In this document: piece after piece, positions 4,209 through 61,164 of the stretch
How the letters are laid out: each line of letters begins with the position of its first letter
Numbering within the stretch: the stretch's first letter is position 1
Assembly: GCF_000194625.1 (NCBI RefSeq)
Contig: NC_015320.1
Location: 558,001 to 622,000 of the forward strand
Length of the DNA: 64,000 bases
DNA from: Archaeoglobus veneficus SNP6
GTDB taxonomy: Archaea; Halobacteriota; Archaeoglobi; Archaeoglobales; Archaeoglobaceae
Reading direction: 5' to 3'
Position numbers and translations under genes: made by a program
The notes under the pieces: generated by a model
Databases searched by the model: none
Seen by the model: only the letters and a program-made list of their open reading frames with translations
Told to the model about the DNA's origin: nothing

Positions 4209-4589
4209 TTAGTACAGGACAAAGTGAATGTTCCTTAAAGCCATTTTGGATAATTTTCGAAAAAACCATGCGGGGGGAGGGATTTGAACCCTCGGACCCC
4301 TACGGGACTGGCCCCTCAAGCCAGCGCCTTTTCCTGACTCGGCAACCCCCGCGACAGCGGAAACGTCAGATATCGGCGAAAGCACGATAGCGACAGGCTG
4401 AATGCCTCGGCGAATCTCTGTAATCAGTTTATCAATGAATTTCGAGATGTTTTCTGTATTATTGTGCAACCATTTATAATTTTCTTCGGATACTGTTATA
4501 TGCAATCTCGGCCTGTTGCGCTTCGTTCGCCGATTGGAGCCCGCTGATGATGATTTGTTTTGTCCGGACACTTGTGTATTTGTGCTCAT
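4209..4589 (-). CDS. Int(N): RHH-like N-terminal piece of the element 1 integrase
   Basis: Residues 1-93 (4310-4589) are viral; the remaining 33 residues are read through the 3' half of tRNA-Leu and host flank. Residues ~27-60 (RPRLHITVSEENYKW, then NISKFIDKLITEI) show the beta-strand plus two-helix pattern of ribbon-helix-helix proteins. After excision, residue 93 continues directly into Int(C) at 17612 with no frame change (280 nt + 866 nt = 382 codons including stop), giving a 381-aa integrase. A minus-strand TTTAAACC near 4632 may be its TATA box. In the integrated state this gene lies upstream of and on the same strand as the tRNA. Confidence 0.75.
   Translation of the reverse strand: MSTNTQVSGQNKSSSAGSNRRTKRNRPRLHITVSEENYKWLHNNTENISKFIDKLITEIRRGIQPVAIVLSPISDVSAVAGVAESGKGAGLRGQSRRGPRVQIPPPAWFFRKLSKMALRNIHFVLY
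4269..4352 (-). tRNA. tRNA-Leu(GAG), reconstituted at attL of element 1
   Basis: On the minus strand a complete cloverleaf is visible: acceptor GCGGGGG / CCCCCGC with discriminator A, a D arm, an anticodon stem CTGGC/GCCAG with loop TTGAGGG (anticodon GAG), a long variable arm typical of tRNA-Leu, and a T arm with GGTTCAAATC. No CCA is encoded. The 5' half (4310-4352) is the att core shared with 17613-17655. The sequence immediately 5' of the tRNA therefore belongs to the provirus, and the native upstream flank lies 13 kb away at 17656. Confidence 0.95.
4310..4352. repeat. attL core of element 1
   Basis: These 43 bp are identical to 17613-17655. They are the 5' half of tRNA-Leu(GAG), from the first base through the anticodon loop. 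The flanks differ immediately outside the repeat (CT versus CA on the left, GAC versus TTG on the right), which defines the crossover segment. The same 43 bp are read in frame by the integrase. Confidence 0.92.
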
Positions 4590-4633
4590 GGTTACTGTTT
4601 ATGAAGCTTATGGTACTTAAACCCTGGATAGGT

Positions 4634-4882
4634 TTAAATGGTTTTCCGTGCCTTCTCGTACTGTTTTATCAGGTACTGGATAACCTTGTCGTAGCTCAAT
4701 CTTACGCCAATTTCCTTTTCTATGTCCTCTTTGATCCTGTCCAGAGGCCTTAAGGCCTCTATCATGTGCTGGATAGCGCGGTTATAGCTCAGGTTTTTCA
4801 TTCCGGTATCTTCCTCAATCTTTTCCTTAATTTTATCAAGATCCTGGAGCGTTTTCATGGTTACAGATATGCCGAAACTCAT
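4634..4882 (-). CDS. Small RHH-like protein with two repeated helical units
   Basis: The 82-aa product begins MSFGISVTMKTLQDLDKIKE. Two similar segments, LDKIKEKIEEDTGMKNLSYNRAIQHMIEAL and a second starting LDRIKEDIEKEIGVRLSYDK, suggest internal duplication of a helix-hairpin unit. The first is preceded by a short beta-like strand (GISVTM), as in RHH DNA-binding proteins. The start at 4882 shares bases with the stop of the upstream 36-aa ORF (TAATG), indicating translational coupling. It sits next to int(N) at the left end of the provirus. The function is probably DNA binding, but not proven. Confidence 0.65.
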   Translation of the reverse strand: MSFGISVTMKTLQDLDKIKEKIEEDTGMKNLSYNRAIQHMIEALRPLDRIKEDIEKEIGVRLSYDKVIQYLIKQYEKARKTI

Positions 4883-4992
4883 TAAAACCACCACAGGAAG
4901 ACTATTTTATTGAGTACTGAGATTGACGCCATTTTCAGACTTACACAAAATCCAAAGCCAATACATTGAGCATCTACAACCAGAATCTTCAT
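4882..4992 (-). CDS. Tiny 36-aa ORF coupled to the RHH-like gene
   Basis: The ORF starts at the ATG whose complement is 4990-4992, just after a strong Shine-Dalgarno (GGAGGT, complement of 4997-5002). It ends TAA overlapping the next ATG at 4882. The predicted peptide begins MKILVVDAQCIGFGF and ends in a hydrophobic LWWF. The ribosome-binding site and exact coupling are the main support. No family is recognised; it could be a leader peptide that couples translation of the downstream gene. Confidence 0.45.
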   Translation of the reverse strand: MKILVVDAQCIGFGFCVSLKMASISVLNKIVFLWWF

Positions 4993-5072
4993 AACCTACC
5001 TCCTTATCAAATATAACCAAACTTCACGGGATCTTGCACAGCTCCTGCAACCTGTTATAAGTCTTGATCTTA

Positions 5073-5756
5073 TCATCCATAATGCTCCGTTATCCTCTTT
5101 ACCTCGCCGGCCCTGATTACGCGATATTCGCCGTTTTTGTGATTGTACTCAAGGACGTCGTGCTCCGCGAGAGAAGCGTTAAGCTCCTGGAAGTTGGGTA
5201 TGAAACGCTCGATATACTTGATATCCTGCGGAATGAACCAGCGGAAGATATACGTCCTATCACACTGGCTCCAAACAAGCTTTGAAAACTCCTGGATCCT
5301 CTGCGTTGTGAATACCATGCTCAGGCCCTTACCTCTTCCCTCACGGACAAACAGCTCGATGATAGGTTCAAGGTTCCACTGACTGGCGAGGTGGTGAGCC
5401 TCTTCAACTATAACGACTCTGTTACGGTCATTGTAGTAGATAACCTCCAGGAGCTGTAGGTACTGCTGCTTTAACTCATCAGTAAGTGTTCGCTCCGTCG
5501 GCCTGATAACCAGGTAATCTTTAGACAGCACCCTGAACCAGTTATAAGCCGTGCTTGGCATAACCTTAACTTCGTGGACGTCCTTCATTGCTGTCAGGCC
5601 GCGGAGGTTATCGCTCTTTGTGTCCAGGACGATGAAACGCCTGCGGAGCCTGCGGAGTTCCTCGCAGATGTAGCCTGTGAAATAGCTCTTACCGGAGCCT
5701 GTAACTCCGGCAATAAGCCAGCGGAAATTATGCGGAAAGTCTATTTTCGCCGGCAT
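5073..5756 (-). CDS. HerA/FtsK-like genome-packaging ATPase
   Basis: The 227-aa product is a compact P-loop ATPase: Walker A GVTGSGKS at residues ~18-25, Walker B VVIVEEAHH at ~113-121 (the EE pair fits the FtsK/HerA superfamily), and a sensor-like MVFTTQR at ~150. Its size and minimal architecture match the A32-like packaging ATPases of PRD1/STIV-lineage viruses, which pump DNA into preformed capsids. Its presence with the double-jelly-roll-like capsid gene at 11665 is the diagnostic pair for that lineage. It overlaps the 5728-6183 membrane-protein gene by 29 bp in the same operon. Confidence 0.82.
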   Translation of the reverse strand: MPAKIDFPHNFRWLIAGVTGSGKSYFTGYICEELRRLRRRFIVLDTKSDNLRGLTAMKDVHEVKVMPSTAYNWFRVLSKDYLVIRPTERTLTDELKQQYLQLLEVIYYNDRNRVVIVEEAHHLASQWNLEPIIELFVREGRGKGLSMVFTTQRIQEFSKLVWSQCDRTYIFRWFIPQDIKYIERFIPNFQELNASLAEHDVLEYNHKNGEYRVIRAGEVKRITEHYG

Positions 5757-6183
5757 GCTCTTCCTGGTTCTCTTCTTTAGGCTTCGCTCTCGCCTTAACC
5801 TGCTCTATCTTCATGTATGCGATAGCTCCGACCATCGTCCCTGCAGCGAGCAGGCCGAGAAGCGGATGGTCAGCCGGAAGCTGCGGAACGTAGTAATCGA
5901 TTACCTTAACGACGGCCTCACCGAACCCAATTTCTGATATCTCCTCCGGCCTTACCTTGTCGCTCTCCTTGATCTCGACTTCGTACTTCTCGCCGGTTAT
6001 CGTGATGATCCTGTTGATCAGAAACGCCGTTCCTCTGTCGATAACCTGAGCGAACGGCTTTAACGCCTCTTCAGTCCTAACCTCCTGCTGGTCAGCAGCC
6101 TGTTCCACAGGCTGGAGCTGCTCGGCTCCAGGCTGCGGCTGCTGGCCTGAGATTATAAACTCCTGAGTTAGATCCTCACCCAT
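5728..6183 (-). CDS. Viral protein with one C-terminal membrane span
   Basis: The 151-aa product has a Gln/Glu/Pro-rich, probably disordered N-terminus (residues 1-40), a central charged region, and a hydrophobic helix HPLLGLLAAGTMVGAIAYM near residues 110-128, followed by a basic-acidic tail. It could be a virion membrane protein or an anchor for the packaging ATPase, whose gene overlaps it downstream. The start overlaps the stop of the upstream 46-aa ORF (GGATGGGTGA), implying coupled translation. No family is recognised. Confidence 0.65.
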   Translation of the reverse strand: MGEDLTQEFIISGQQPQPGAEQLQPVEQAADQQEVRTEEALKPFAQVIDRGTAFLINRIITITGEKYEVEIKESDKVRPEEISEIGFGEAVVKVIDYYVPQLPADHPLLGLLAAGTMVGAIAYMKIEQVKARAKPKEENQEEHAGENRLSA

Positions 6184-6316
6184 CCCTATCCAGCCTCCTG
6201 ATTACAAAATCAATTTCCAGGTCCTCAATAACCAGCTTACCTTTCAGGCCTCCGCTCTTCAGCTTCTCGGTCTTGATGCCGAGCTGATTCATCAGCGCAG
6301 TGATGATCGGGTTCAT
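6176..6316 (-). CDS. 46-aa viral ORF
   Basis: The frame starts at the ATG complementary to 6314-6316 and ends TGA at 6176, overlapping both neighbours by 4-8 bp in the tightly packed operon. The peptide begins MNPIITALMNQLGIKTEKLK and ends with the charged DFVIRRLDRDG. It fills an otherwise unexplained gap between two operon genes, which is the best support for it being real. No function can be assigned. Confidence 0.5.
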   Translation of the reverse strand: MNPIITALMNQLGIKTEKLKSGGLKGKLVIEDLEIDFVIRRLDRDG

Positions 6317-6720
6317 GGGTATTCATCTCCGAAGTGATGAAAGCCAGGCTGGCCCTCATCCTTCTCCTGCTCAGGTTCTACCTTCCTCGCAAACAGCTTC
6401 AGATAGGCGATGTATGCCAGCGATGCAACTGCTCCGAGAACCAGAAGGATATTTACGGCCCTTCTCAGCCTGGACTTTTTCGGTGGCTCCTGCTGCTGTG
6501 GTGGCTGTGGCTGTGGTGCCGGCTTGCTGTCCAGGATGGGTTCGCCGGCGACGTCCCTGGTCAGGTCGGCAGGTTCATCATTCTGCTGCGGAGGTTCATC
6601 ATTCGCGGCAGGCTCAGGCTCTACCTCCTTAACCTTATATCTCTTGCATTTCGGACATTGCGGCCTTTTCGCGTTGCTTTCCCAGACATGGCCACAGTTC
6701 AAACATTCATACACAGTCAT
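6313..6720 (-). CDS. Zinc-ribbon membrane protein
   Basis: The 135-aa product starts with a zinc ribbon: CLNCGH and CPKCKRYK, four cysteines in residues 5-25. A long Pro/Gln/Glu-rich linker follows (residues ~30-80), then one membrane span (residues ~91-108, VNILLVLGAVASLAYIAYL), and a short charged tail. The start MTVYECLNCGH at 6720 is preferred over the open frame to 6753. The layout of a cytoplasmic zinc ribbon with a C-terminal anchor suggests a membrane-tethered binding protein of the virus. No known family. Confidence 0.65.
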   Translation of the reverse strand: MTVYECLNCGHVWESNAKRPQCPKCKRYKVKEVEPEPAANDEPPQQNDEPADLTRDVAGEPILDSKPAPQPQPPQQQEPPKKSRLRRAVNILLVLGAVASLAYIAYLKLFARKVEPEQEKDEGQPGFHHFGDEYP

Positions 6721-6786
6721 GCCATCACCGGATGAAATTTTCAAGCTCATCATCTTAAATGATGAATAGCGAAAGGTTATGTTTCA

Positions 6787-6996
6787 TCATGCTATCTCTA
6801 TATGGTTGTCAGGTGGGAGCTCCTCAGGCTCTTCCTCTTCGCAGTCTTCCACGACGCCGATGAGATTGTCCAGGTAAAAGTGAAAGTGGAAGCCCTGGTT
6901 ACAGAGGAGGTACCACTCGGTAATGCAACCGGCGATAAATCCAAGGCCGAAGAATGCGAGCAGCCAGGAGACTTCGATCACTCTGAGGCCTCCCAT
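6787..6996 (-). CDS. Small membrane protein with acidic tail
   Basis: The 69-aa product has one strong hydrophobic segment (SWLLAFFGLGFIAGCITEWYLL, residues ~10-31) and a very acidic C-terminal tail (CEEEEPEELPPDN). Its start overlaps the end of the 6978-7661 gene by 19 bp. It belongs to the leftward provirus operon and is probably a virion or cell-membrane component. No family is recognised. Confidence 0.55.
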   Translation of the reverse strand: MGGLRVIEVSWLLAFFGLGFIAGCITEWYLLCNQGFHFHFYLDNLIGVVEDCEEEEPEELPPDNHIEIA

Positions 6997-7661
6997 GGAG
7001 TTCCTATAACCTCTACCTCCTGTCGGAGCCTCTGCCTGGCTTCCTCACTGAGGGAATAGTCATGTTGCTTGACCAGTACGAGCCTCTTACCTCCTCTTCC
7101 TGGTGATGTTTCCTGGATGAGCTCAGCATCAAAATCGACGTACCTTGAATAAACGTGCATCAGCAACCTCGCATCAGGTGGGTGTATTTTCATTCCGAGT
7201 TCGCCGGCAATCTCTATAATCTCTTTATAGGTGCTCCTCTCCGGCAGCCTGGCGTATATCTCCTTAACCCTCTGATAATCCAACCTCCTGCTCCTGGTCC
7301 ATTTACCGTCCATTTCCTGTCTGAGATACAGGAACCTGCCATCAACGGCATATTTGAAGTGGCCGGCATCTATCCAGGTTAGTTTGGTTTCTTCCTCAGG
7401 CTCGGCCTCAGACTCCTCTTTACTTCCGTTGGATTCCAACGGATAAATAGAATCAGTTTTATGCACTTCTTCTGTGATTCTCTTCTCCAGGAACGCAAGG
7501 ATTTCATATATTGCCTTTATCTCTCTAACCGTGAGTTCGGTATCTCCAACCTTTACCCCTACAAATTCACCCTCCTTATAGAAAATATCCACGTACAGCC
7601 CGTTATCTTCCTCATTCTCCTTCCAGTAATACCTCTCCATACTAACCAGGTGTTCTATCAT
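6978..7661 (-). CDS. Viral protein of unknown function, 227 aa
   Basis: The ATG at 7661 is preceded by GGAGGG about 10 bp upstream, which decides the start over the internal Met at codon 8. Residues 1-80 and 100-227 look like two small alpha/beta domains joined by an acidic linker (KEESEAEPEEET). The C-terminal half contains helix-turn-helix-like text (STYKEIIEIAGELGMKIHPPDARLL), which could bind DNA. It lies between the RHH-coiled-coil gene and small membrane genes in the leftward operon. Confidence 0.6.
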   Translation of the reverse strand: MIEHLVSMERYYWKENEEDNGLYVDIFYKEGEFVGVKVGDTELTVREIKAIYEILAFLEKRITEEVHKTDSIYPLESNGSKEESEAEPEEETKLTWIDAGHFKYAVDGRFLYLRQEMDGKWTRSRRLDYQRVKEIYARLPERSTYKEIIEIAGELGMKIHPPDARLLMHVYSRYVDFDAELIQETSPGRGGKRLVLVKQHDYSLSEEARQRLRQEVEVIGTPWEASE

Positions 7662-7664
7662 ACA

Positions 7665-8168
7665 TCAACCCTCCAGATATTCTTTCAAATCCGGAAAAAC
7701 CTTAAAGAAGAGCTGCCATGCTTCCTGAAGGCTTAACTTATTCTGCGCCGCGAAGGCTGAAAGCCTCTGCTCTATCAGGTCTTTAGGCTTGAATCCCGTC
7801 CGGCGTGCTGTCCTCTCAAATGCCTCGAAGTCCTTGAGGTCGTCGAAGACTTCAAGCTCCAGCAACCTGATGAGGCTAAGGTTTTGTTCGATTTCTTTGG
7901 CTTCCTGTTCCTGTTCGAATTTCTTTCTCAGCTCTTCGAGTTCCGGCTGGATGCTGTTGATGATCTCATAAGCCTGCTTAACCTTCCTCTCAAGCTCTCG
8001 GATCTTCAGAATCTCCTTAGTGATAACCTTGTCATCATTGTTGCCGAAAAAGTAGTTCCTGAGGAGGGAATTAACCAGCCTGCTGACGTTACCTCCATTA
8101 TTCTTGAATTCTTTGAGGGCTGATAGAACGTCATCATCAACGGAAGCACTAATAACATTCCGCGGCAC
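7665..8168 (-). CDS. RHH protein with long coiled coil
   Basis: The 167-aa product opens with a ribbon-helix-helix pattern (NVISASVDDDVLSALKEF, then NVSRLVNSLLRNYF, residues 5-42). A predicted coiled coil (residues ~50-100, rich in Glu/Lys/Leu heptads) and a helical C-terminal domain follow. It is the first gene downstream of the TTATTAAT-rich control region 8169-8373, so it may bind those repeats and control its own operon. RHH proteins with long C-terminal coils are common viral repressors and partition proteins. Confidence 0.7.
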   Translation of the reverse strand: MPRNVISASVDDDVLSALKEFKNNGGNVSRLVNSLLRNYFFGNNDDKVITKEILKIRELERKVKQAYEIINSIQPELEELRKKFEQEQEAKEIEQNLSLIRLLELEVFDDLKDFEAFERTARRTGFKPKDLIEQRLSAFAAQNKLSLQEAWQLFFKVFPDLKEYLEG

Positions 8169-8373
8169 GGTTAAAACCTCCGAAAAGTGTTATTAATTTT
8201 AATAACCGGAGTTATTAACACCCTATTGCTTCTCCTGGAGAACGAGAAAGACAACCTGGTTGTAGTTGTTGTTAGTAGTAAAGTTAGTGTTATTAATAAT
8301 CCTACAGCGTTATTAATTAATAACGCTGGCATGGTTGTATTAATCTTCGAATTCCACAGGAAAGAAAGGAAGT
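8169..8373. promoter_or_regulatory. Operator region with repeated TTATTAAT motifs and a 24-bp palindrome
   Basis: This 205-bp gap contains at least four TTATTAA-type motifs: at about 8188 (GTGTTATTAATTTT), 8211 (GAGTTATTAACACC), 8288 (GTGTTATTAATAAT) and 8308 (GCGTTATTAATTAA). The last is the centre of a perfect 24-bp palindrome at 8305-8328 (half-site CAGCGTTATTAA). Apparent ORFs on both strands here are low-complexity and have no codon signature. The position just upstream of the leftward RHH gene suggests an autoregulated promoter. Confidence 0.6.
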
Positions 8374-8568
8374 TCATGGTATCACCAGGTCTGCTAAGCT
8401 CGCCTTTTTGATAATGATGCGCTGTTCTTCGAGCTTGATGGCTAAGTACTCTCCTTTCTGGAGGTTAAGCTCTCTTACGAATTCCGCTGGTAGATTGACA
8501 TAATAGCTCTTTGATTTGCAGTACTGGAGCTTTCGAAGCCTGGTTTTATTGATGGCTGGCTGTCTCAT
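8374..8568 (-). CDS. AbrB/SpoVT-like swapped-hairpin DNA-binding protein
   Basis: The 64-aa product fits the AbrB/MazE fold: LRKLQYCKSKSYYVNLPAEFVRELNLQKGEYLAIKLEEQRIIIKK has the typical 'sYyVnLP..fv..L.L.kGe.l...l....iii.k' pattern. Such proteins are dimeric transcription regulators or antitoxins. It is upstream of the repeat-rich operator region, and its start overlaps the stop of the 37-aa ORF (TTATGA). No partner toxin gene is visible, so a regulator of the provirus is the better reading. Confidence 0.75.
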   Translation of the reverse strand: MRQPAINKTRLRKLQYCKSKSYYVNLPAEFVRELNLQKGEYLAIKLEEQRIIIKKASLADLVIP

Positions 8569-8678
8569 AACTCATGAACCTCCTTCTTTTCTAAGAACTC
8601 AGCGGCAAGAAATGCGGCAAGTATCAGGTTTCTGACATTCATAAGCTCCGGATGCGGTAATGCTATCACCATCTTCAT
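8565..8678 (-). CDS. 37-aa viral ORF
   Basis: The ORF is joined to both neighbours by overlaps: its ATG shares ATGA with the stop of the upstream 190-aa gene, and its TGA overlaps the AbrB ATG. The peptide reads MKMVIALPHPELMNVRNLIL and continues as an amphipathic helix ending KKEVHEL. The precise head and tail couplings in a compact operon are the evidence. No function can be assigned. Confidence 0.5.
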   Translation of the reverse strand: MKMVIALPHPELMNVRNLILAAFLAAEFLEKKEVHEL

Positions 8679-9247
8679 TCCTGGACCTCCTGGATTATGT
8701 CGGCGAGGGCAGTAACGACCTCCACGTCAGAAAGAGTCAGGCCTTCGTCCAGCGGTATCTTAACATAGTAATCCCTGAGCTGATGGTATCCGTTGTTCCT
8801 GTGCTCGGTCCTCCAGAAGTTCAGCTTGACCAGTTTGTAGCACCCTGGTACCCTGACCAGGTAGAAAACAGGAACGTCCAGCGTTTCACTCAGCGTCCTC
8901 AGCGTGTGCCATTCTGATTTGCTGACTCTGATGTAGCCGTTTTGCTGCCTCCTGCGTACTTTTAGCTCGAAGAGGGCCTTAATCTCGTCACCTACTCTGA
9001 TGATCTTATCGACGTCGTTGATGATTACGTTATTAACGTTCGCAGCCACCTTGGCCTCCTCAATGAAATAAGAGAAGTATATCATCGATTTTAGCTCGGT
9101 GAGCTTGTTGATCACGAAGGTGAGGACGTCCTTCTCGAACTGCTCGGTAGTGTTTCGCTTCCTTTCGGCGAGCAGGCCCTGGATCTCTGTTACCTTTCTC
9201 GCAAAGTATCCTGGCTGTCTATAGAATGTTTCCAATCGCATCGTCAT
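8675..9247 (-). CDS. Predicted PD-(D/E)XK-type nuclease-like protein
   Basis: The 190-aa product contains NDVDKIIRVGDEIKALFELKVRRR (given here as two halves joined at VGD; residues ~75-98), where an Asp and E-x-K lie on adjacent strands as in PD-(D/E)XK nucleases. A second helix-strand unit ends DVPVFYLVRVPG. The same core occurs in the 142-aa protein of element 2 (56478). The likely role is a Holliday-junction or restriction-type nuclease, or an inactive relative. Catalysis is inference from the motif; the N-terminal ~70 residues are helical and not diagnostic. Confidence 0.55.
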   Translation of the reverse strand: MTMRLETFYRQPGYFARKVTEIQGLLAERKRNTTEQFEKDVLTFVINKLTELKSMIYFSYFIEEAKVAANVNNVIINDVDKIIRVGDEIKALFELKVRRRQQNGYIRVSKSEWHTLRTLSETLDVPVFYLVRVPGCYKLVKLNFWRTEHRNNGYHQLRDYYVKIPLDEGLTLSDVEVVTALADIIQEVQE

Positions 9248-9736: not shown

Positions 9737-9739
9737 AGC

Positions 9740-10197: not shown

Positions 10198-10200
10198 AGC

Positions 10201-10664: not shown

Positions 10665-10745
10665 GAGTAATACATTACTCCATGAATTTATAAAGGTTAC
10701 GGCTATGACGAAAGTATTAATAAAGCATGGGTGATAACTATAACT
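10665..10745. promoter_or_regulatory. Central divergent promoter of element 1
   Basis: This 81-bp gap separates the leftward and rightward provirus operons. An inverted repeat GAGTAAT-AC-ATTACTC occupies 10665-10680. AT-rich TATA-like tracts (AATTTATAAAGG near 10685 and AGTATTAATAAAGC near 10711) could serve the two directions. Both flanking genes encode RHH proteins. Confidence 0.6.
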
Positions 10746-12627: not shown

Positions 12628-12630
12628 GCC

Positions 12631-16746: not shown

Positions 16747-17622
16747 TTAGAACGGGAATTCGTCGGCTATTTTCGTATAAAGCTCGTCTGCATCCTCGAC
16801 GAGATCCAGGTAATACCTGTCTATAACTGCCTTACCCACTCGGCCCTGTATAAAGTTGATCAGAGTCTCGGCCGTCACGCCGAGCTGGAGCTTCTTCTCT
16901 TTGATCTTTCTCTTCAGGAAATTGGTATGCCATTTTCTGAGCTGCTCCGGCAGGATAATCCTGTCCGCGAGCTTCGCGCCTTTAACGGTAGTCTCCTTGA
17001 TGTCTATCCTCTTGAGCTGCCTGGCGAAATCTGCCGGCATATATGCGTAGTACGTCCTCTTTGTTCCTGCCTTGCTCTTCAGCTCATACGTCGGATATCT
17101 CGCATAGTTTCCGTGGAACTCCAGCTTATTCTTATCGAAGGTTCTTAGGAGTTCAAGGGCCTCACGGAGTCGCAGGCCTGTATATGCAAGCAGCCTTATC
17201 AGGATCTGCCGCCTCTCATCCTTCTTAACCTTCGGAGAATTGAGGGCCTCTATGATCTTCTCATCTGTCGTAAACGCCTCTTCCGGCGGCCTTGGCTGCG
17301 TTCCTGGTATGTCTATTACGGCCTGGAAGTCCATTAACTCACTCTTCTTTCGGATGCCTGACTTTATCAGGAACCTCATAAACGTCCTTATCGCCTTGCG
17401 GTGGTGCCTCTGCGGATAGTCCTTATAGATGTTGTACAGCTCATGAGGATCGTTGATCTTCTTGCCGGCTATTGTCTGCTCCAGGTCACGGAGGTACTGC
17501 TCTGCTGTCTCCTTACTGACTTCCTTAAACAGCCATTCCTTAAACTCTTCTTTATATTTATCGTAATCTAAAACAGCTTCATTAAAAGCCTCGGCAGCCC
17601 TTTCTTTATACAGGCCCCTCAA
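16747..17622 (-). CDS. Int(C): catalytic part of the element 1 tyrosine integrase
   Basis: The 291-aa frame opens with a TTG inside the att core. Residues ~1-110 form the helical core-binding domain. The catalytic domain carries the first Arg in AYTGLRLREALELL, a basic RKWHTNFLKR segment, and the C-terminal FIQGRVGKAVIDRYYLDLVE with the likely Tyr nucleophile. Read across attP it joins Int(N) residue 93 without a frame change, making a 381-aa SSV-type integrase. In the provirus it can only be made from an internal start, so it is probably inactive until the gene is restored. Confidence 0.85.
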   Translation of the reverse strand: MRGLYKERAAEAFNEAVLDYDKYKEEFKEWLFKEVSKETAEQYLRDLEQTIAGKKINDPHELYNIYKDYPQRHHRKAIRTFMRFLIKSGIRKKSELMDFQAVIDIPGTQPRPPEEAFTTDEKIIEALNSPKVKKDERRQILIRLLAYTGLRLREALELLRTFDKNKLEFHGNYARYPTYELKSKAGTKRTYYAYMPADFARQLKRIDIKETTVKGAKLADRIILPEQLRKWHTNFLKRKIKEKKLQLGVTAETLINFIQGRVGKAVIDRYYLDLVEDADELYTKIADEFPF

Positions 17623-17655
17623 GCCAGCGCCTTTTCCTGACTCGGCAACCCCCGC
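17613..17655. repeat. attR core of element 1
   Basis: These 43 bp are an exact copy of 4310-4352 (5' half of tRNA-Leu including the anticodon loop). Host DNA starts at 17656. Because the core is the 5' half, the DNA right of it is the original upstream flank and promoter of the tRNA-Leu gene. Confidence 0.92.
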
Positions 17656-51157: not shown

Positions 51158-51409
51158 TTAAGCCCACAGGTTAAGGGCTGCCGAGGGGCCGTGGGGTAGC
51201 CTGGTGATCCTCCCGGCTTTGGGAGCCGGTGACCCGAGTTCAAATCTCGGCGGCCCCACTGCTATAGGATGTTTTACGTAAAATAGAAACCTCAGGAGCT
51301 CTCCTTCGACGAAATCAGACAGGTTAGGGATGTACTGGCGTGCAGCTTCCAGTACATCCTTGCGAATACTCAACCTCACAGGTACTTTACCAAGGTTGGG
51401 GCGCCCCAT
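51158..51409 (-). CDS. Int(N): RHH N-terminal piece of the element 2 integrase
   Basis: Residues 1-65 (51216-51409) are element-derived, and the rest is read antisense through tRNA-Pro. Residues 8-42 (KVPVRLSIRKDVLEAARQYI, then NLSDFVEGELLRFL) are a clear CcdA-like ribbon-helix-helix pattern. Residues 51-65 (VGPPRFELGSPAPKA) are encoded by the att core. Across attP the frame continues into Int(C) at 61120 (194 + 1048 nt = 414 codons), giving a 413-aa protein. In the integrated state this ORF would make an 83-aa RHH protein on its own. Confidence 0.78.
   Translation of the reverse strand: MGRPNLGKVPVRLSIRKDVLEAARQYIPNLSDFVEGELLRFLFYVKHPIAVGPPRFELGSPAPKAGRITRLPHGPSAALNLWA
51185..51258 (+). tRNA. 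tRNA-Pro(TGG), integration target of element 2
   Basis: Acceptor GGGGCCG / CGGCCCC with discriminator A, D arm TGGGGTAGCCTGGTGATCC, anticodon stem CCGGC/GCCGG with loop TTTGGGA (anticodon TGG), T arm GAGTTCAAATCTC. No intron or CCA. Its 3' half is the 45-bp att core of element 2, and its 5' half and promoter remain host DNA, so expression is unaffected by integration. Confidence 0.96.
51216..51260. repeat. attL core of element 2
   Basis: These 45 bp run from the anticodon stem to two bases past the 3' end of tRNA-Pro and equal 61121-61165. Outside it the sequences differ at once (CG/CA on the left, GC/CG on the right). Confidence 0.93.
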
Positions 51410-51505
51410 GGATGAGTAATATGGCCATGAAATGATAAAGTTAGCGGAGCTTGTTGTGGGTGAACACTATCCAACAATAATTATACAACACGTGTGATGA
51501 AAATC

Positions 51506-56100: not shown

Positions 56101-56481
56101 GATGGTTCAACCGCCTACATCCCGAAGAAGCTCGCAGAACTGAGAAGGCGAAAAGAGGAGGAGGCGAGGAAAGCCGAAGAGGCAGAAGAGGATGAAAACG
56201 AAACTGCTGGTTTTGACCTTGAAGCAGCACTCGGAATCCAGCGAGAGAATATCGAGGACCTTCTCGACGAGGACGAGGAGACTGAGGAAGATGATGAGGA
56301 TATCGAGTACGTTACAATAAAGATCGTCAAACTCCCGCCAGTTCGCGAGTTCATCGGTGTTGACGGTCAGACTTACGAAATAAAAGAGGAAGGCCAGATT
56401 TTGAGGATTCCAGCCCTTAATGCTCGTCCATTTCTGGAGAGAGGCTACGCCATAGAAGTTAAGGAGGGTGATGCTCCATGA
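53128..56481 (+). CDS. DnaG-like primase fused to an AAA+/SF3-like helicase
   Basis: The 1117-aa protein starts with a CHC2-type zinc finger (residues ~32-64: GPHPVHG and WYCFRCQSGGDALAWL). A DnaG-like catalytic core follows with TOPRIM acids in EVVITEGIADAITA (~277) and IYIVNDNEESG (~322). A P-loop helicase domain comes later: ALVGEKGSAKTFTLRLFG (~672), Walker B GFIALDNVDSP (~713), and SSRDPHFRRDDVADRLLI. A charged acidic linker and a small C-terminal domain end it. This bacterial-type primase-helicase fusion would start replication of the element. The family as a whole is not one I can name. Confidence 0.85.
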   Translation: MVDKKALLEEIRSKLRLEDLIDLTGFKLIGGEYRGPHPVHGSTTGTNLAVNLDNQVWYCFRCQSGGDALAWLAVQEGLIDCSEADDIAHVFPEVLRIACERLGIDFNTTPEDRRAWRKLREEEQLLEAMFKEALAFFREQLEDCPDVKEWIREKYGLSWNDELLEKFGIGYCPPDGDRLAKHLITKFGEVNALKTGLIIPTKDGYRDFFAGRVVFPYFVRGKPAYFIARQTPWTPDGPTKEAKYLKQLKKSDNHQYVSSLVEEPIYGIDSLRGAKEVVITEGIADAITAIANGFPAISPVTTRFKAEHVPDLQKYVRGRTIYIVNDNEESGAGLRGALAILRSIEGDARLVILPRPEGIEKIDVNDYFKALTAEEFRELLDKAVPKEEALLRFSDSVVDIFRVVLKEKAIDPDKAFGIWQNKEQYWKYVPLEEALPNDAKLAIAAFRRDKIGEIKNHVEAPIRHSVIAGVTLRLLLKCGRFLKDELNNLYYFREDEKRVYEISEKSEEFKGLLYDLTGLNSKTQSFKEAVAEVTAYALRHGEEVSVYRDFHYDRERGILYVYLQNGEYLALDGEKVEVWPNGANGIYFARNKLVEPLKYIPSEEREQIEIPGQIEELRRDGNLFIQAVCNRTSYDPNSELTIRQQRDLLALYYYSVPFGDFLSTVPLLALVGEKGSAKTFTLRLFGRLIYGRHFDVSSINPTPSGERDFVAALANWGFIALDNVDSPVSWLEDALAKVATRGVHRMRKLFTNAEEVDVPIRSFVALSSRDPHFRRDDVADRLLIIKTTRLSNFIPEGVLLEAVTKYRNVVFSEYVDGLNRIVKALKGVNLAEITIPHRLADWVAFAQIAAEALGFDVESVRDALEKLDEVRANFTVEADSFYLILKGWVETSNTGEWLTATQLFKELQNFANTIGLELYVRNPISLGRKLQNLKAELARILGMETKYDSHEKVWLYRFPKPDNLLQKNDDDSNDQDEGDGSPEEYEKRTLSDGSTAYIPKKLAELRRRKEEEARKAEEAEEDENETAGFDLEAALGIQRENIEDLLDEDEETEEDDEDIEYVTIKIVKLPPVREFIGVDGQTYEIKEEGQILRIPALNARPFLERGYAIEVKEGDAP

Positions 56482-56906
56482 AGTGCCCTTACTGCGGAAA
56501 CTTCCTCGAAAACACCCTCTTCAAAGCTCTCGAGCCATACCACGACGATTCCGCTGTAGTAGTCACCAACGTTGACTACGTCCTGGATGTCGGAAACAGA
56601 ATTAGGGCAATCATCGAGGAGAAGCACAGCAACAGGAAGGTTATAAGGGGTTACCAGGCCGTAACACTGAAGAAGATAGCTAAATGTCTGAAAGTTCCGT
56701 TTTACGTTCTCTTCTCGAAGAATGGCGTTGAGCTATACGAGGTTGACAGATTCAGCATAGTCCGCTCCAATCCCTACGTCAGCTTCGAGGATAAGGAACC
56801 CGTTCTTTCCGGCTCGATCTCTGACCTTGGAACCTTCCTCTATGAGAACTTCCTGGCTGACGCTCCTCCCTCAAGAAACGGGAGGAGAGGAGGGGGAAGG
56901 AGATGA
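56478..56906 (+). CDS. Predicted PD-(D/E)XK-type protein with zinc-like N-terminus
   Basis: The 142-aa product starts with MKCPYCGNFLE (a half zinc site) and contains TNVDYVLDVGNRIRAIIEEK, a strand-Asp...E-x-K core, then LKVPFYVLFSKNGVELYEVD. The same core is in the element 1 protein at 8675-9247. A nuclease fold is likely; activity is unproven. It overlaps the primase stop by 4 bp (ATGA) and the next gene by 4 bp. Confidence 0.55.
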   Translation: MKCPYCGNFLENTLFKALEPYHDDSAVVVTNVDYVLDVGNRIRAIIEEKHSNRKVIRGYQAVTLKKIAKCLKVPFYVLFSKNGVELYEVDRFSIVRSNPYVSFEDKEPVLSGSISDLGTFLYENFLADAPPSRNGRRGGGRR

Positions 56907-57088
56907 GGTACCTGAAAGTTAGGACCGAGACAGGTGGAGAGGGCGAGCTCGGAGAAATAAGCCTGTGGGTGTTTAGGGGAGAGTGGAAGGCAAGGAAGGA
57001 GAACGGGAGAATTTACCTCAGCTACGGCAGCATAACCTTAGAGATGGACCCAGAGACCTTCAATGAGCTCAGGAACGCCCTTTCTTAA
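56903..57088 (+). CDS. 61-aa beta-rich protein
   Basis: The product (starting MRYLKVRTETGGEGELGEIS, then LWVFRGEWKARKENGRIYLS) is a small beta barrel-like protein with a C-terminal helix DPETFNELRNAL. It overlaps the previous stop (ATGA). Possibly an ssDNA-binding or replication accessory protein, by position only. Confidence 0.55.
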   Translation: MRYLKVRTETGGEGELGEISLWVFRGEWKARKENGRIYLSYGSITLEMDPETFNELRNALS

Positions 57089-57107
57089 TCTTTTCGAGGT
57101 GTGGAAG

Positions 57108-57344
57108 ATGAAGGGCAAGAAGAACGGACCGAAGAAGTACCTTGCCGGCGTGGTGGACTTTGGGATCCTGGGAAGGAGAGAGGCCTACCTGTTCAAGAAC
57201 GAGAAGCGGGAGAAGAAGGAACAGCCAGCTTACAGATTGGTGATCAAGGAAGGCGATGCATGGAAGGAAGTTGGAGCGTTCTGGGTCCGAGAAAGCAAAA
57301 CGAAGGAAGTTGAGGAGGAAGAGATCGATCTGTCAGGTGACTGA
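57108..57344 (+). CDS. 78-aa basic/acidic protein
   Basis: The start MKGKKNGPKKYLAGVVDFGI at 57108 follows CGAGGTG; the longer frame from 57063 is rejected. A basic N-terminus, a beta-rich middle (AYRLVIKEGDAWKEVGAFWV) and an acidic tail (EVEEEEIDLSGD) are typical of ssDNA-binding-like small proteins. The function is not established. It ends 1 bp before the next gene. Confidence 0.55.
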   Translation: MKGKKNGPKKYLAGVVDFGILGRREAYLFKNEKREKKEQPAYRLVIKEGDAWKEVGAFWVRESKTKEVEEEEIDLSGD

Positions 57345-57345
57345 A

Positions 57346-57714
57346 ATGCCACGCCCACGCAAATCCTTCCCCATTTCTTTCTGCCTCTCCCTTAGAGAAA
57401 GAGGATACAGCTACGAAATGATAGCGTGGAAGCTTCAGCAGCTCGGCTATGACGTCAGCAAGTGGACGGTGATGAGGAGACTATCTCCCATAGAGAGGTC
57501 CTCGAGCTGTGGCCACAACAACCAGGAGACTGTGGCCACAGGCGGACCTGGACAATCAGGTTGTGATTTTGCACCGTCAACCAGCAACATTCAGCACGAA
57601 AATCCGGGCTTTAGCGCTCAAAGACTCGAAGAAGCCAGCATAGATTTGCTGGCTGGAGAGGTTGAGAGCTTTGATGAATTGGTGGACAGGCTGAAGGGTT
57701 GCCATGAAGCCTGA
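57346..57714 (+). CDS. HTH protein containing two iteron-like boxes in its coding sequence
   Basis: The 122-aa product starts MPRPRKSFPIS and has an HTH resembling resolvase/transposase recognition domains: LSLRERGYSYEMIAWKLQQL then VSKWTVMRRL. The middle (residues ~50-90) is low complexity, because the DNA there contains TGTGGCCACA twice (57508-57517 and 57531-57540), closely related to the TGTGGACACA array at 59890-60009. The C-terminus is helical (LAGEVESFDELVDRLKG). A related HTH is in the 58418 gene. It could be the factor that binds those repeats. Confidence 0.65.
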   Translation: MPRPRKSFPISFCLSLRERGYSYEMIAWKLQQLGYDVSKWTVMRRLSPIERSSSCGHNNQETVATGGPGQSGCDFAPSTSNIQHENPGFSAQRLEEASIDLLAGEVESFDELVDRLKGCHEA

Positions 57715-57787
57715 AGTCTTCACCATCCTTGCCGTCATCTTCTGCCTGTGGGCTTTGTCGAGATACCTCAGGAGGAGGCTGGCATGA
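57704..57787 (+). CDS. 27-aa single-span peptide
   Basis: The ORF overlaps both neighbours (ATG within the previous gene, TGA within the next start, ATGA). It reads MKPEVFTILAVIFCLWALSR and a basic end YLRRRLA. One membrane helix with a basic end. It is very short and supported only by coupling and composition. Confidence 0.4.
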   Translation: MKPEVFTILAVIFCLWALSRYLRRRLA

Positions 57788-58158
57788 TCAAAAAGCCTCG
57801 AGAGATCTGCCAGGTAGAAGGCTGCAAGGGTAAAGTCGTCATGCGCTGCTCCAATTGCCTCCGCTACGTATGCGAAAAGCACAGCGGAGATCTACCTCTT
57901 CTCTGCTCTGACTGCTCTAAAATCCCGGAATCTAAGAGAGAAAAAGAAACGATCATTGTGCTGCCAGCAAGCTCGCCTTATGCTTTTATCACCACAGCAG
58001 AACGCTGCTGGATAAGAAAGCTGTCGAAGCTAAAGGATGCTGAACTACTCGAAGAATTCAAGGACTCGAGGGGGAGAACCCACGCCGTGAAGTTTGCAAT
58101 CGACAAGCGGCACATCACATTAACCAGCAAGCCACGAAAGAGATACGATCACTTTTGA
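57784..58158 (+). CDS. B-box/AN1-like zinc-finger protein
   Basis: The 124-aa protein has an N-terminal cross-brace-like Cys/His set: CQVEGCKGKVVMRCSNCLRY, then VCEKHSGDLPLLCSDC, i.e. six to eight metal ligands in ~40 residues. The C-terminal half is a small alpha/beta domain (RCWIRKLSKLKDAELLEEFK). Such fingers usually mediate protein contacts. The start MIKKPREICQ at 57784 is coupled to the 27-aa ORF. Confidence 0.65.
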   Translation: MIKKPREICQVEGCKGKVVMRCSNCLRYVCEKHSGDLPLLCSDCSKIPESKREKETIIVLPASSPYAFITTAERCWIRKLSKLKDAELLEEFKDSRGRTHAVKFAIDKRHITLTSKPRKRYDHF

Positions 58159-58215
58159 GAATGCTATGAAGTTGGGATTTTTGCTCATGGTATGTGCATT
58201 TCAGGAGGTGAAAGA

Positions 58216-58395
58216 TTGAACCACGATAGGGAGTTCAGGAGAAGGAGATCCCGCACATTCAACGCTATCTACTTGAAAATTGAGGATGAGAAGGAACTCA
58301 TCGAAATCTCCTGGAAAGGAACCTGCAGGCTTGAGAAGGCCATCGACGAGCTGAAGAGGTTAATTGAGGAAGGGATTAAGGTTAAGATGAGGTGA
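58216..58395 (+). CDS. 59-aa small alpha/beta protein
   Basis: A TTG at 58216 lies after GGAGGTG and gives LNHDREFRRRRSRTFNAIYL, then a strand and a helix (LEKAIDELKRLIEEGIKVKM). The basic N-terminus suggests nucleic-acid contact. The open frame from 58192 lacks a ribosome-binding site. No family known. Confidence 0.5.
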   Translation: MNHDREFRRRRSRTFNAIYLKIEDEKELIEISWKGTCRLEKAIDELKRLIEEGIKVKMR

Positions 58396-58417
58396 AATCT
58401 CGTGAGAGGTGTTTGGC

Positions 58418-58879
58418 ATGGTTGACATCCACAGCATTTTCAAGCGGATAGAAAGAGGAGAGAAGATCTCCAGAAAAGAGCTGGAGGAACTGGGAATCAA
58501 AGAGAGGATGAGCCATAAGGAATGGCTGGAAAGAGTCAGGGTTGAAGGGATGGACGTCCACACCTACGTGAAGCTGAATCCTCCTGAAAGCGATGTGTTT
58601 GTTGTTCCAAAGGAGTTGCTGCAACCTCTCAAAAGCACGGGAAGAGAGGAACAGGAGAGAAAGCAGAAAGAAAAGAAAAAACAGCTTAAGGAGGCAGTAG
58701 GCAAACCAAGAGCTGACAAGTTGAGAAAGCCAAAGAAGGAGATACCAATTGAAAAGGTGAGGAGGCTGAGAGAAAGGGGTTACTCATACAGGCAGATAGC
58801 GCTTATTCTAAGGGTGGAAGATGGCATTTACGTTTCGCCCATGACAGTCTGGAGGAGACTCCGGGAATGTCTAATGTAA
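58418..58879 (+). CDS. HTH protein related to the 57346 product
   Basis: The 153-aa product starts MVDIHSIFKRIERGEKISRK after GAGGTG. A lysine-rich coiled segment (residues ~85-115) precedes a C-terminal HTH: VRRLRERGYSYRQIALILRV then YVSPMTVWRRLRECLM. The 'LRERGYSY..IA..L.....VS..TV.RRL' pattern is shared with the 57346 gene, so the two may bind the same or paired sites. It is the last rightward gene. Confidence 0.65.
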   Translation: MVDIHSIFKRIERGEKISRKELEELGIKERMSHKEWLERVRVEGMDVHTYVKLNPPESDVFVVPKELLQPLKSTGREEQERKQKEKKKQLKEAVGKPRADKLRKPKKEIPIEKVRRLRERGYSYRQIALILRVEDGIYVSPMTVWRRLRECLM

Positions 58880-58908
58880 AAATCTTTCATAACCTGATAC
58901 TACTATAG

Positions 58909-58924
58909 CCCGTAACGATACGGG
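58909..58924. terminator. Short hairpin after the replication operon
   Basis: CCCGTA-ACGA-TACGGG forms a 6-bp stem 30 bp past the last stop codon, followed by A/T-rich DNA. It may mark the end of the rightward operon. The region 58880-59106 otherwise shows nothing coding. Confidence 0.35.
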
Positions 58925-59106
58925 AATGAGACAATATTAAATTCTATTATAGAGTGCTCTTTAAATAAATAAAGCTGGCCATAAAAAGCAATCACAGCGA
59001 TGGAAGTGTTAAGAGAAGGCAAAGGGGTGTAAAGATTTCACCAAGCTTGGCTGGTGTAAAAAAAGAGAGGATAGAGGGTGATGCTGCATGCTGCTGAAGA
59101 TCGGGT

Positions 59107-59385
59107 TTACACAGCCCCTTCTCCGGCTCCATATCTTGCGTAGAGGAACATTCCCAGGACACCGAAAGCAATGAAGCCTATTGCCGTCAGGAAGTTGAAC
59201 TTCAGTATGCTGAATCCGAGAGTTCCTGCCTCGTTGATGAAGTTCAGAGTTGCAGTCTGGAATGTCAGGTCAGTGATCGTCCCTGCCAGGTCTATGGCGA
59301 TACCACCGGTGTATCCGAGGACTATACCCATGATCATCACTGTCAATATTATCGCACCTGCATGAATGGCCAGTGCACTTGTCAT
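59107..59385 (-). CDS. 92-aa protein with two membrane spans, possible coat protein
   Basis: Two long hydrophobic helices (AGAIILTVMIMGIVLGYTGG, residues 10-29, and FLTAIGFIAFGVLGMFLYAR, residues 65-84) flank a polar Thr/Asn-rich loop. This size and design resemble coat proteins of spindle-shaped archaeal viruses, but also ordinary small membrane proteins. An own promoter is likely in the AT-rich 59400-59510. Minus-strand GGAGGTGATGCGGG precedes the ATG. Confidence 0.6.
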   Translation of the reverse strand: MTSALAIHAGAIILTVMIMGIVLGYTGGIAIDLAGTITDLTFQTATLNFINEAGTLGFSILKFNFLTAIGFIAFGVLGMFLYARYGAGEGAV

Positions 59386-59511
59386 TTTCCCGCATCACCT
59401 CCGTCAGAAGGTACATTGTCATGATGATTTAAATAATTTTCTGATACAATAAAATTATAAAAATTTATATATATTTATTCTTTTCCTTAATCTTACTGGT
59501 TTCGAAAGTAT

Positions 59512-59715
59512 TTAAGTTTTGCTAAATGGGAGGTTGTGCAGTTCTGCAACAGAAACAAGGCAGTCTCCTCTTTGGTGGTATATCCTCAAAAACTTCCTGT
59601 TACGGTTCCATTTCTTGCTGATGAATGCAAAACCTGGCCTTCCACATCTTGGACAGATCACCTCAACACGGTAGCAGCCTTGGAGTTCAAGAACAGAAGC
59701 CAGCATATTTGTCAA
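59512..59715 (-). CDS. Small zinc-ribbon protein
   Basis: The 67-aa product has YRVEVICPRCGRPGFAFISK (two Cys) and later GDCLVS, with basic beta strands between (KWNRNRKFLRIYHQRG). This matches the archaeal zinc-ribbon-plus-basic-hairpin layout often found near integrases in mobile elements. It may bind DNA. Start at 59715 or at Met 4. Confidence 0.6.
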   Translation of the reverse strand: MTNMLASVLELQGCYRVEVICPRCGRPGFAFISKKWNRNRKFLRIYHQRGDCLVSVAELHNLPFSKT

Positions 59716-59889
59716 TAAATATCAGACTATATTTGACTTTCTGAGATAATAGATTATTTTACTACCGGAATTTTGCACCATCAGGCAGGCGTGTTCTAAG
59801 GTGATAACAGGGGTTAATGTGGGGAGAGGGGAGGTTCCAAGACACAACGTCGAAGAATCTTTCGACTCGCAAGGTTACAGGTCCAGTGT

Positions 59890-60009
59890 TGTGTCCACAA
59901 TCCTGGACCTGCATGCTGTGGACACAACCCTGGACGTCCACCTTGTGGACACAGTGACCAGGAGACTGTGGACACAGAACCCCAGGGATCTCCCAGGGAT
60001 GTGGACACA
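59890..60009. repeat. Iteron array of five TGTGGACACA boxes (candidate origin)
   Basis: Boxes: 59890-59899 (inverted, TGTGTCCACA), 59917-59926, 59944-59953, 59967-59976 and 60000-60009. Start-to-start distances are 27, 27, 23 and 33 bp. Two spacers contain CCTGGAC-type text. Nothing codes here. Such arrays are typical of plasmid/virus replication origins or of partition sites. Confidence 0.75.
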
Positions 60010-60011
60010 AT

Positions 60012-60072
60012 AGATCCCCATCCAGTTTACTGGACAAAAGTATAAAAGAAACTGTCCGGAAAACTGGACAGA
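60012..60072 (-). terminator. Dyads and T-rich tract downstream of int(C)
   Basis: On the minus strand, directly after the integrase stop: CTGTCC...GGACAG hairpin, a T-rich tract (TTTCTTTTATACTTTTG), then a TCCAGT..ACTGGA dyad. This could end integrase transcription before it reaches the iteron array. The repeated GTCCAGT/ACTGGAC sequence could also be a binding site. Confidence 0.4.
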
Positions 60073-61164
60073 TTAATTGCTGTTGATGGCTTTGAGAAGC
60101 TCCTCCAGCCTGACCTCTTCAGGCACAAGGTTGACCTTTCCCCACGCTGCCATGTACTGTTCATAGATCTCACTGGGAAGCTTCCCGTCATAGCTCTGAA
60201 CGTCAAGGCTGCCAGTGTTGTGTGCCATAATGTAGTCTCTTAATCCGGGATGTACTGCTGGAACTACTCTGCCATCAGGAAGCTGAATATTCAGGACGTT
60301 GTTGCACATCTGCTCGAAGAACTTTCTAAGGTGGGAGTAGGTTATCTTTCTGCCTGTGTGGACGGCCTTGATATCTATCCTGGTGAATGCTTTTCTAATG
60401 GAATTATACGGAAAAACAACGTCATCACGTGGTTTTTGCTGCTGAAGATGCCGATAATCGAGAACAGCCCGCAGCCATTCAACCACCACAGGATGGAGAG
60501 GAACCCAGTGAGGGAAGGACTCTTTGTCCTTCTCCTCTGGGACCCACAGCATTGGCGGGTTTCTGCTCAATGCCCTCTCAAAGTCCTGAAACGTTAGCTT
60601 TGAAATGGTTGCTTCGGGTCTTTGACCTGTGTAGGCTGCAAAAAGAACGTTTGCGATGTACTTGATCTTGGCGTAGGTATCCCTTATTTCCGAATTGTGT
60701 GGATCTCTGGGGAGATTGTAAATCGCCCTGATTACGTTTTTAACATCTTCTTCTCTAATGAGAATTGGATTAATTTTCTTGCTTGGCCTCTGGGGTTTGT
60801 CAAGGACTTCCTTGAGATCCCTGGCGAGAGGATTTCCCGTGGTTTTGTAGACGTACTCGAGGAAAGACTTGGTGTAGGTGTAGTACTTGTGGAGAACGTC
60901 ATAGCTGTTGTATTCAGACATGTACCAGTTCTGAAACTCTATCAATGTCCGGCGGCTCAGAATGCCCTTGGTTTTCTCCATAAGGTCTTTCTGAATCTTT
61001 GTAATCCAGTACCTTCCACCGTCTGTCTTGCTTTTTGTAAACCTGTATTGGATGTATTCCCTTGATATTCGCTCATCGACCTTTATTTCTGCTGAATTTT
61101 GTGTAAATCGCTCTATTTCAGCTTTGGGAGCCGGTGACCCGAGTTCAAATCTCGGCGGCCCCAC
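60073..61164 (-). CDS. Int(C): catalytic part of the element 2 tyrosine integrase
   Basis: The 363-aa frame opens with a GTG inside the att core. Residues ~20-160 are core-binding; the catalytic domain has the first Arg in FAAYTGQRPEATISKL (~195), YSHLRKFFEQM (H-x-R box, ~285), and the Tyr region YDGKLPSEIYEQYMAAWG near residue 340. Joined across attP to Int(N) residue 65, it forms a 413-aa protein. Restored only after excision, as in SSV-type integrases. Confidence 0.87.
   Translation of the reverse strand: MGPPRFELGSPAPKAEIERFTQNSAEIKVDERISREYIQYRFTKSKTDGGRYWITKIQKDLMEKTKGILSRRTLIEFQNWYMSEYNSYDVLHKYYTYTKSFLEYVYKTTGNPLARDLKEVLDKPQRPSKKINPILIREEDVKNVIRAIYNLPRDPHNSEIRDTYAKIKYIANVLFAAYTGQRPEATISKLTFQDFERALSRNPPMLWVPEEKDKESFPHWVPLHPVVVEWLRAVLDYRHLQQQKPRDDVVFPYNSIRKAFTRIDIKAVHTGRKITYSHLRKFFEQMCNNVLNIQLPDGRVVPAVHPGLRDYIMAHNTGSLDVQSYDGKLPSEIYEQYMAAWGKVNLVPEEVRLEELLKAINSN

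What the first reader, a model, noticed from the sequence alone, without database searches (positions are those of the whole stretch)
4310..61164. RHH-recombinase fusion cut between domains: a possible integration-coupled switch
In both elements the part upstream of attP is a ribbon-helix-helix-like domain (TVSEENYKW..NISKFIDKLI; VRLSIRKDVLE..NLSDFVEGELL), and the part downstream is the tyrosine recombinase. Integration therefore does two things at once: it removes the recombinase N-terminus and leaves a free, promoter-linked RHH protein at attL. That protein could bind att or the int promoter and keep the element silent, or act as an antitoxin-like maintenance factor. SSV-type splitting is known; I do not know of a described RHH-Int version that separates a DNA-binding regulator from the catalyst.
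Basis: partly seen in the sequence, partly recalled or inferred. Interest (0 to 1): 0.88.

Follow-up and report, generated by a model that had tools for sequence, protein, structure and literature searches.

The report
Self-splitting integrases with built-in repressor domain
Two mobile elements in a heat-loving archaeon carry an integrase gene that is cut in two when the element inserts into a tRNA gene; the piece left behind is a small DNA-binding (ribbon-helix-helix) domain that keeps its own promoter and a nearby palindrome that looks like its private binding site, a regulatory layer I could not find described for this known class of 'suicidal' integrases.

Summary
Both elements carry an attP-in-gene tyrosine integrase split at a tRNA gene into int(N), ribbon-helix-helix (RHH)-like, and int(C), catalytic. 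The splitting is known (SSV/pTN3/pT26-2 'suicidal' integrases), and RHH-like N-termini turn out to be the rule: pTN3, pT26-2, pGE2 and 89 Archaeoglobi loci, 73 of which run into a tRNA gene.

New here: each RHH subtype carries its own palindrome or tandem repeat at the 5' end of its own gene (window 4561-4570 and 51417-51432). Palindromes of 10 bp or more occur at 27/71 int(N) starts, against 8 expected and 10% of control ORF starts. The palindrome changes with the RHH beta-strand: R-Y-T goes with GTGTACGTACAC in both pTN3 and a third element of this genome, where that 12-mer occurs once in 1.9 Mb. This looks like a self-operator, so Int is probably autoregulated; promoter, operator and RHH stay together after integration.

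A dedicated post-integration switch is not shown. int(N) copies decay, elements with the same operator coexist in one genome, and element 1's int(N) frame has no stop codon before the tRNA. Verdict: known anatomy, apparently unreported regulatory layer, switch function open.

The parts
4269..4352 (-). tRNA-Leu(gag), rebuilt target gene of element 1; the only gag copy found (other Leu genes read tag, cag, caa; a fifth Leu-like gene was not resolved)
4307..4352 (.). attL of element 1 (5' half of tRNA-Leu)
4209..4589 (-). int(N) of element 1 as an open frame that runs through the tRNA with no stop before it; 93 codons up to the end of the repeat
4404..4511 (-). RHH-like domain of Int(N)1 (strand PRLHITV, two helices)
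4561..4570 (.). candidate operator TGTCCGGACA at codons 7-10 of int(N)1; kept in 18 aligned type-1 loci while flanking wobble bases vary
4614..4621 (-). TATA-like box TTTAAGTA upstream of int(N)1; now also the nearest good promoter for tRNA-Leu(gag)
16747..17655 (-). int(C) of element 1, tyrosine recombinase (PF16795)
17610..17655 (.). attR of element 1
51185..51259 (+). tRNA-Pro(tgg), target gene of element 2
51216..51265 (.). attL of element 2 (3' half of tRNA-Pro)
51158..51409 (-). int(N) of element 2 as an open frame, antisense to the tRNA; 65 codons before the junction
51281..51388 (-). RHH-like domain of Int(N)2 (strand PVRLSI, two helices)
51417..51432 (.). candidate operator TTTCATGGCCATATTA between the TATA-like box and the start codon; family form TTTTATRCGYATAAAA
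60073..61170 (-). int(C) of element 2, tyrosine recombinase of a second catalytic lineage (weak PF00589, not PF16795)
61121..61170 (.). attR of element 2

Best explanation
These are archaeal suicidal integrases whose N-terminal domain is an RHH DNA-binding module joined by a tRNA-encoded, disordered linker to the core-binding and catalytic domains. In the circular element the RHH part most likely binds, as a dimer, a palindrome (often tandem, about 11 bp apart) at the 5' end of its own gene, and so autorepresses int; it may also help Int multimerise. Recombination with the tRNA cuts the gene in the linker. Promoter, operator and RHH stay at attL as int(N); the catalytic part is left at attR without them. 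The left-over Int(N) may still bind its operator, limit its own synthesis, and act in trans on an intact int gene of a circular or related copy, but it is mostly a by-product that decays. Shown by sequence: fusion, cut position, operator-like sites and their link to RHH type. Inferred: RHH fold and DNA binding, autorepression, trans action.
For: Split anatomy. RHH profile hits; helices plus disordered att linker. Family-wide: 89 loci, 73 run into a tRNA; intact fusions in pTN3, pT26-2, pGE2 and L095. Palindromes of 10 bp or more at 27/71 int(N) starts vs 8.1 in shuffles and 10% of 538 control ORF starts; 16-bp near-palindromes 20/71 vs 3.3 and 4%. Type-1 site: inside bases 1.2-2.0 bits, the bases directly next to it (one of them a free wobble base) 0.16-0.23 bits; L167/L168 carry it three times at 11 bp in three reading frames. 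Strand triad follows palindrome: RTT GTGTCATGACAC, RTW GTGGACGTCCAC, RYT GTGTACGTACAC in both pTN3 and L129. Uniqueness: GTGTACGTACAC and GTGTCATGACAC each occur once in 1.9 Mb, both at int(N) starts; GTGTACGTACAC once in pTN3, at the int start; GTGGGCC only three times in pGE2, all at the int start, and four times in tandem at the int start of pT26-2.
Against: No binding or expression data. RHH homology is weak by profile (best 6e-6) and the isolated fold prediction is low confidence with no structural hit. Loci share ancestry, so counts are not independent. About 60% of int(N) starts lack a perfect palindrome of 10 bp or more. The same triad RHT goes with two different palindromes (TGTCCGGACA and TTATGCGCATAA), so the triad is not a full code. 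pT26-2 has eight further scattered GTGGGCC copies. A role as an arm-type site for recombination is not excluded.
Confidence: 0.62

Rival explanations
1. The RHH domain is only a recombination part: it dimerises Int and binds the palindrome as an arm-type site, as the N-terminal domain of lambda Int does. int(N) after integration is an inert pseudogene.
For: [quoted passage not shown] Several int(N) copies are broken or truncated. Sites lie within roughly 200-300 bp of att.
Against: Within each subtype the sites keep a fixed place relative to the start codon, either between the TATA-like box and ATG or at codons 6-10, while the distance to the tRNA varies. Only one site cluster per element was found in those scanned, whereas lambda-type arms use sites on both sides (general knowledge).
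Confidence: 0.3
2. One reading: free Int(N) is a maintained regulator or antitoxin-like factor of the integrated state.
For: Promoter, operator and open frame remain at attL in both elements. In 5'-half integrants the tRNA lacks a good TATA box of its own (p = 0.003), so int(N) is probably transcribed. An orphan int(N) with no element left persists in two Geoglobus species with 17 synonymous vs 10 nonsynonymous changes. int(N) transcripts are reported for pXQ1/XQ2 (PMC8371274).
Against: The Geoglobus case is confounded by a conversion tract from another copy, and the two copies differ at conserved positions 19, 21 and 29. A second shared orphan is broken (L086/L087/L164). Genomes hold two or three int(N) with the same or nearly the same operator (G019, G022, G057), against strict immunity. 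Element 1 has no stop before the tRNA, so tRNA processing would leave a nonstop mRNA. No Int(N) expression was detected for pSSVi (PMC8371274).
Confidence: 0.2
3. The palindromes are incidental promoter or coding features shared by descent and have nothing to do with the RHH domain.
For: Loci are homologous within subtypes, and AT-rich promoters produce some palindromes.
Against: Excess over dinucleotide shuffles and over other ORF starts; conserved bases inside and variable bases directly outside; one site read in three frames; identical 12-mer with the same strand triad in Thermococcus and Archaeoglobi.
Confidence: 0.1

Closest known systems
pTN3 / TKV4 suicidal integrase (Thermococcus), PMC5495485
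   Same: attP in the gene, 41-bp match to the 5' part of tRNA-Leu, tRNA separated from its promoter, PF16795, RHH-like N-terminus (found here), palindrome at codons 7-10 (found here)
   Different: RHH and palindrome not named in the passages read; sequence identity to element 1 below 30%
pT26-2 / pGE2 suicidal integrases (Thermococcales; reported also in Archaeoglobales), PMC6972569, PMC8371274
   Same: attP in the gene, 3' half of tRNA as in element 2, RHH-like N-terminus, tandem repeats at the int start
   Different: Catalytic domain PF16795 (tested for pT26-2), which element 2 lacks; repeats are GTGGGCC at 10-11 bp rather than one palindrome
ArcVen-P3 of Archaeoglobus veneficus (PMC4158269)
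   Same: Split SSV-like integrase at tRNA-Ser with a previously unannotated int(N); very probably the element at L129 of this genome
   Different: The paper reports CopG-like RHH proteins as separate genes, not as the integrase N-terminus, in the passages read
F55 repressor of SSV1 (PMC8371274, PMC4158269)
   Same: RHH protein that represses the integrase operon
   Different: Separate gene, not fused to Int and not generated by integration
Lambda Int N-terminal arm-binding domain
   Same: Small N-terminal DNA-binding module on a tyrosine recombinase
   Different: Different fold; gene not split; arm sites flank attP (general knowledge)

Membership tests
Archaeal suicidal (SSV-type, type I) integrases | attP inside the integrase gene; gene split into int(N) and int(C) on integration | tested here: met
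   intact unsplit relatives
Archaeal suicidal (SSV-type, type I) integrases | tRNA gene target rebuilt after integration | tested here: met
Archaeal suicidal (SSV-type, type I) integrases | Catalytic domain Phage_integr_3 (PF16795) | tested here: inconclusive
   Element 1 met (6.8e-37); element 2 not met, only weak PF00589. Element 2 works like the family but its catalytic part belongs to another lineage.
Archaeal suicidal (SSV-type, type I) integrases | Site-specific recombination activity | not testable with these tools
   Fold of an element-2 relative matches XerA and lambda Int; no assay
Ribbon-helix-helix DNA-binding proteins | Strand followed by two helices with conserved turn (here N-L/I-S) | tested here: met
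   the strand itself is not modelled as a strand in the monomer
Ribbon-helix-helix DNA-binding proteins | Profile similarity to known RHH families | tested here: met
   CcdA 21/27 members, best 6.3e-6; member 1 is below the gathering score; CopG/CcdA in PDB, weak
Ribbon-helix-helix DNA-binding proteins | Dimeric fold confirmed by structure | tested here: inconclusive
   Low-confidence monomer model, no Foldseek match
Ribbon-helix-helix DNA-binding proteins | Binds short palindromic or tandem operators | not testable with these tools
   Candidate operators only
Type II antitoxins (CcdA-like) | Cognate toxin encoded next to it | not tested
   Toxin partners were not searched for systematically at the int(N) loci

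The most novel reading that the evidence does not exclude
Integration converts an autoregulated RHH-integrase into a stand-alone RHH repressor with its own operator. This repressor blocks the intact int gene of circular or incoming relatives (re-integration control) and, in 5'-half integrants, also governs transcription of the tRNA gene that now depends on the int(N) promoter.
Probability: 0.22. Interest if true: 0.85.

Novelty: new variant of a known kind. Interest (0 to 1): 0.6.

Why it matters
Why archaeal elements keep integrases that destroy their own gene is an open puzzle (PMC8371274). Recognising the N-terminal half as an RHH regulator with a matching operator gives that half a job other than recombination, offers a handle on integrase specificity and control, and provides a natural set of RHH strand/operator pairs that can be tested at the bench. 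It also shows that the split-gene design occurs with two catalytic lineages sharing one type of regulatory front end.

Tried and rejected
Relatives in IMG/VR viral contigs: two scans found none. Element 2 Int in plasmids: no match. A selection test on an orphan int(N) shared by two Geoglobus species first looked like strong purifying selection, but a tract of about 80 bp in one copy is nearly identical to another int(N) of the same genome, so it is only suggestive. TGTCCGGACA alone is not rare in the whole genome (3 sites, about chance); the case rests on position, base conservation and the longer palindromes. Stand-alone RHH genes: one candidate (L084) without a tRNA; not pursued. The full text of Badel et al. 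2020 (PMC7253208), the main pT26-2 integrase paper, is not held, so an earlier RHH remark there cannot be excluded. Foldseek of the 93-aa model gave nothing.
Full report
WHAT IS THERE. The window is part of a single-contig 1,901,943-base archaeal genome; the nearest named relatives are Archaeoglobales and Geoglobus. Two integrated elements lie in the span. Element 1 (4307-17655) uses the 5' half of tRNA-Leu(gag); element 2 (51216-61170) uses the 3' half of tRNA-Pro(tgg). In each, int(N) reads out of the element into the tRNA and int(C) starts at the other repeat. Joining N and C gives integrases of 381 and 413 residues. Element 1 carries virus-like genes (head protein, packaging ATPase); element 2 carries a DnaG-like primase.

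KNOWN CLASS. Splitting at attP is the hallmark of suicidal integrases (PMC8371274). Element 1 matches pTN3 closely in design: pTN3 shares 41 bp with the tRNA-Leu gene and the rebuilt tRNA is separated from its promoter (PMC5495485). The intact plasmid integrases of pTN3, pT26-2 and pGE2 have RHH-like N-termini when read here. The review does not contain RHH or CopG, and five literature searches aimed at RHH did not show that anyone had named it; the main 2020 paper is not held.

HOW WIDE. In 59 Archaeoglobi genomes, hits to the two N-termini led to 89 int(N)-like places in the loci fetched; 73 run directly into a tRNA gene, mostly antisense (3' half), about a dozen sense (5' half). The integrase of element 2 belongs to a lineage that PF16795 does not recognise but whose predicted fold resembles XerA and lambda Int. 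Similar RHH fronts occur with both catalytic lineages. The review ascribes suicidal integrases to a single origin among PF16795 proteins; element 2 does not fit that simply.

STRUCTURE. AlphaFold of an intact relative (L114) gives two short helices after an extended N-terminal stretch, a poorly ordered 40-62 region that includes the att-encoded residues, then well-predicted core-binding and catalytic domains. Int(N)1 alone gives two helices at 35-43 and 45-60, pLDDT about 72 there. Profiles point to RHH antitoxin and CopG families.

OPERATOR-LIKE SITES. Lining up int(N) starts showed a palindrome at nearly the same place within each subtype. Statistics: 27 of 71 starts hold a perfect palindrome of 10 bp or more (8.1 in shuffles, maximum 17 in 200 rounds; 10% in 538 control ORF starts; Fisher p about 1e-8); 20 of 71 hold a 16-bp palindrome with at least 7 of 8 pairs (3.3; 4%; p about 2e-9). 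Members are related, so the p-values overstate. In the type-1 group the ten site bases carry 1.2-2.0 bits while the bases directly outside, including a free wobble base, carry about 0.2 bits, so the DNA itself seems constrained. L167 and L168 hold three copies 11 bp apart that are read in three frames. pT26-2 has four GTGGGCC at 10-11 bp and pGE2 three at 10 bp, at the start of int. The RHH strand triad goes with the site; most striking, R-Y-T and GTGTACGTACAC occur together in pTN3 and in the tRNA-Ser element of this genome, where the 12-mer is found once. GTGTCATGACAC is likewise found once, at the int(N) of the tRNA-Leu(cag) element.

WHAT HAPPENS AFTER INTEGRATION. Operator, promoter and RHH stay at attL, away from int(C). 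In sense (5'-half) loci the region just before the tRNA has a poorer TATA box than other tRNAs (p = 0.003), while the int(N) promoter usually has a better one. tRNA-Leu(gag) has no second full copy; the other Leu genes read tag, cag, caa and one unresolved. So transcription of int(N)1 into the tRNA is likely. The int(N)1 frame has no stop before the tRNA, so processing of the tRNA would truncate the message; whether protein is made is open. From, a rough hand count in the complete or nearly complete genomes leaves about 70% of both int(N) and int(C) intact; as int(N) is far shorter, it is not specially preserved. An orphan int(N) at tRNA-Gly in two Geoglobus species, with no int(C) or second att found and absent from the related G030 locus, may have been kept, but gene conversion blurs the test.

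RECONSTITUTION. L095 shows two identical 8,724-bp copies in tandem in one tRNA-Lys, with an intact RHH-int at the inner junction. L073 shows an old int(N) remnant fused in frame to a newer int(C). Repeated integration into one tRNA can thus rebuild a full-length gene. L095 may be an assembly product.

CONCLUSION. Known kind of integrase; the RHH identity with a self-operator is, as far as I could search, unreported. Autoregulation of int is the best-supported function; the post-integration switch remains a testable possibility.

Noticed in passing
L095 (G017:C8:1-18700): Two identical 8,724-bp elements in tandem at tRNA-Lys with an intact RHH-integrase at the inner junction, int(C) at one end and int(N) at the tRNA; a simple way to rebuild a suicidal integrase, unless it is an assembly product.
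   Followed up: partly
L073 / L126 (G025:C1, about 1145945-1147100): Old int(N) remnant fused in frame to a newer int(C) after a second integration into the same tRNA-Val: hybrid integrase frame in a complete genome.
   Followed up: partly
L144 7787-8008 and L145 (Geoglobus): Orphan int(N) at tRNA-Gly(ccc) beside host genes (a trpS-like gene and a small membrane-protein gene), with no element left, in two species.
   Followed up: partly
window 60073-61170: Suicidal integrase whose catalytic domain is not PF16795, suggesting a second catalytic lineage with this design.
   Followed up: partly
L129 (G000:C1:1820000-1839000): tRNA-Ser element, probably published ArcVen-P3; its int(N) carries GTGTACGTACGTGTACGTACAC, the pTN3 palindrome in near-tandem form.
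   Followed up: partly
L106 (G000:C1:1546500-1559500): Further elements in the same genome at tRNA-Leu(cag) and tRNA-Ala(cgc), the latter with a broken int(C).
   Followed up: no
L084 (G014:C1:1278000-1280500): RHH open frame of the int(N) type that ends right after the domain with no tRNA nearby; possible free-standing copy.
   Followed up: no
window 5073-5756 and 11656-12627: Element 1 encodes a HerA/FtsK-like packaging ATPase and a protein similar to a viral head protein, so it is provirus-like.
   Followed up: partly
window 53128-56481: Element 2 encodes a 1117-residue protein with a DnaG-type primase start.
   Followed up: no
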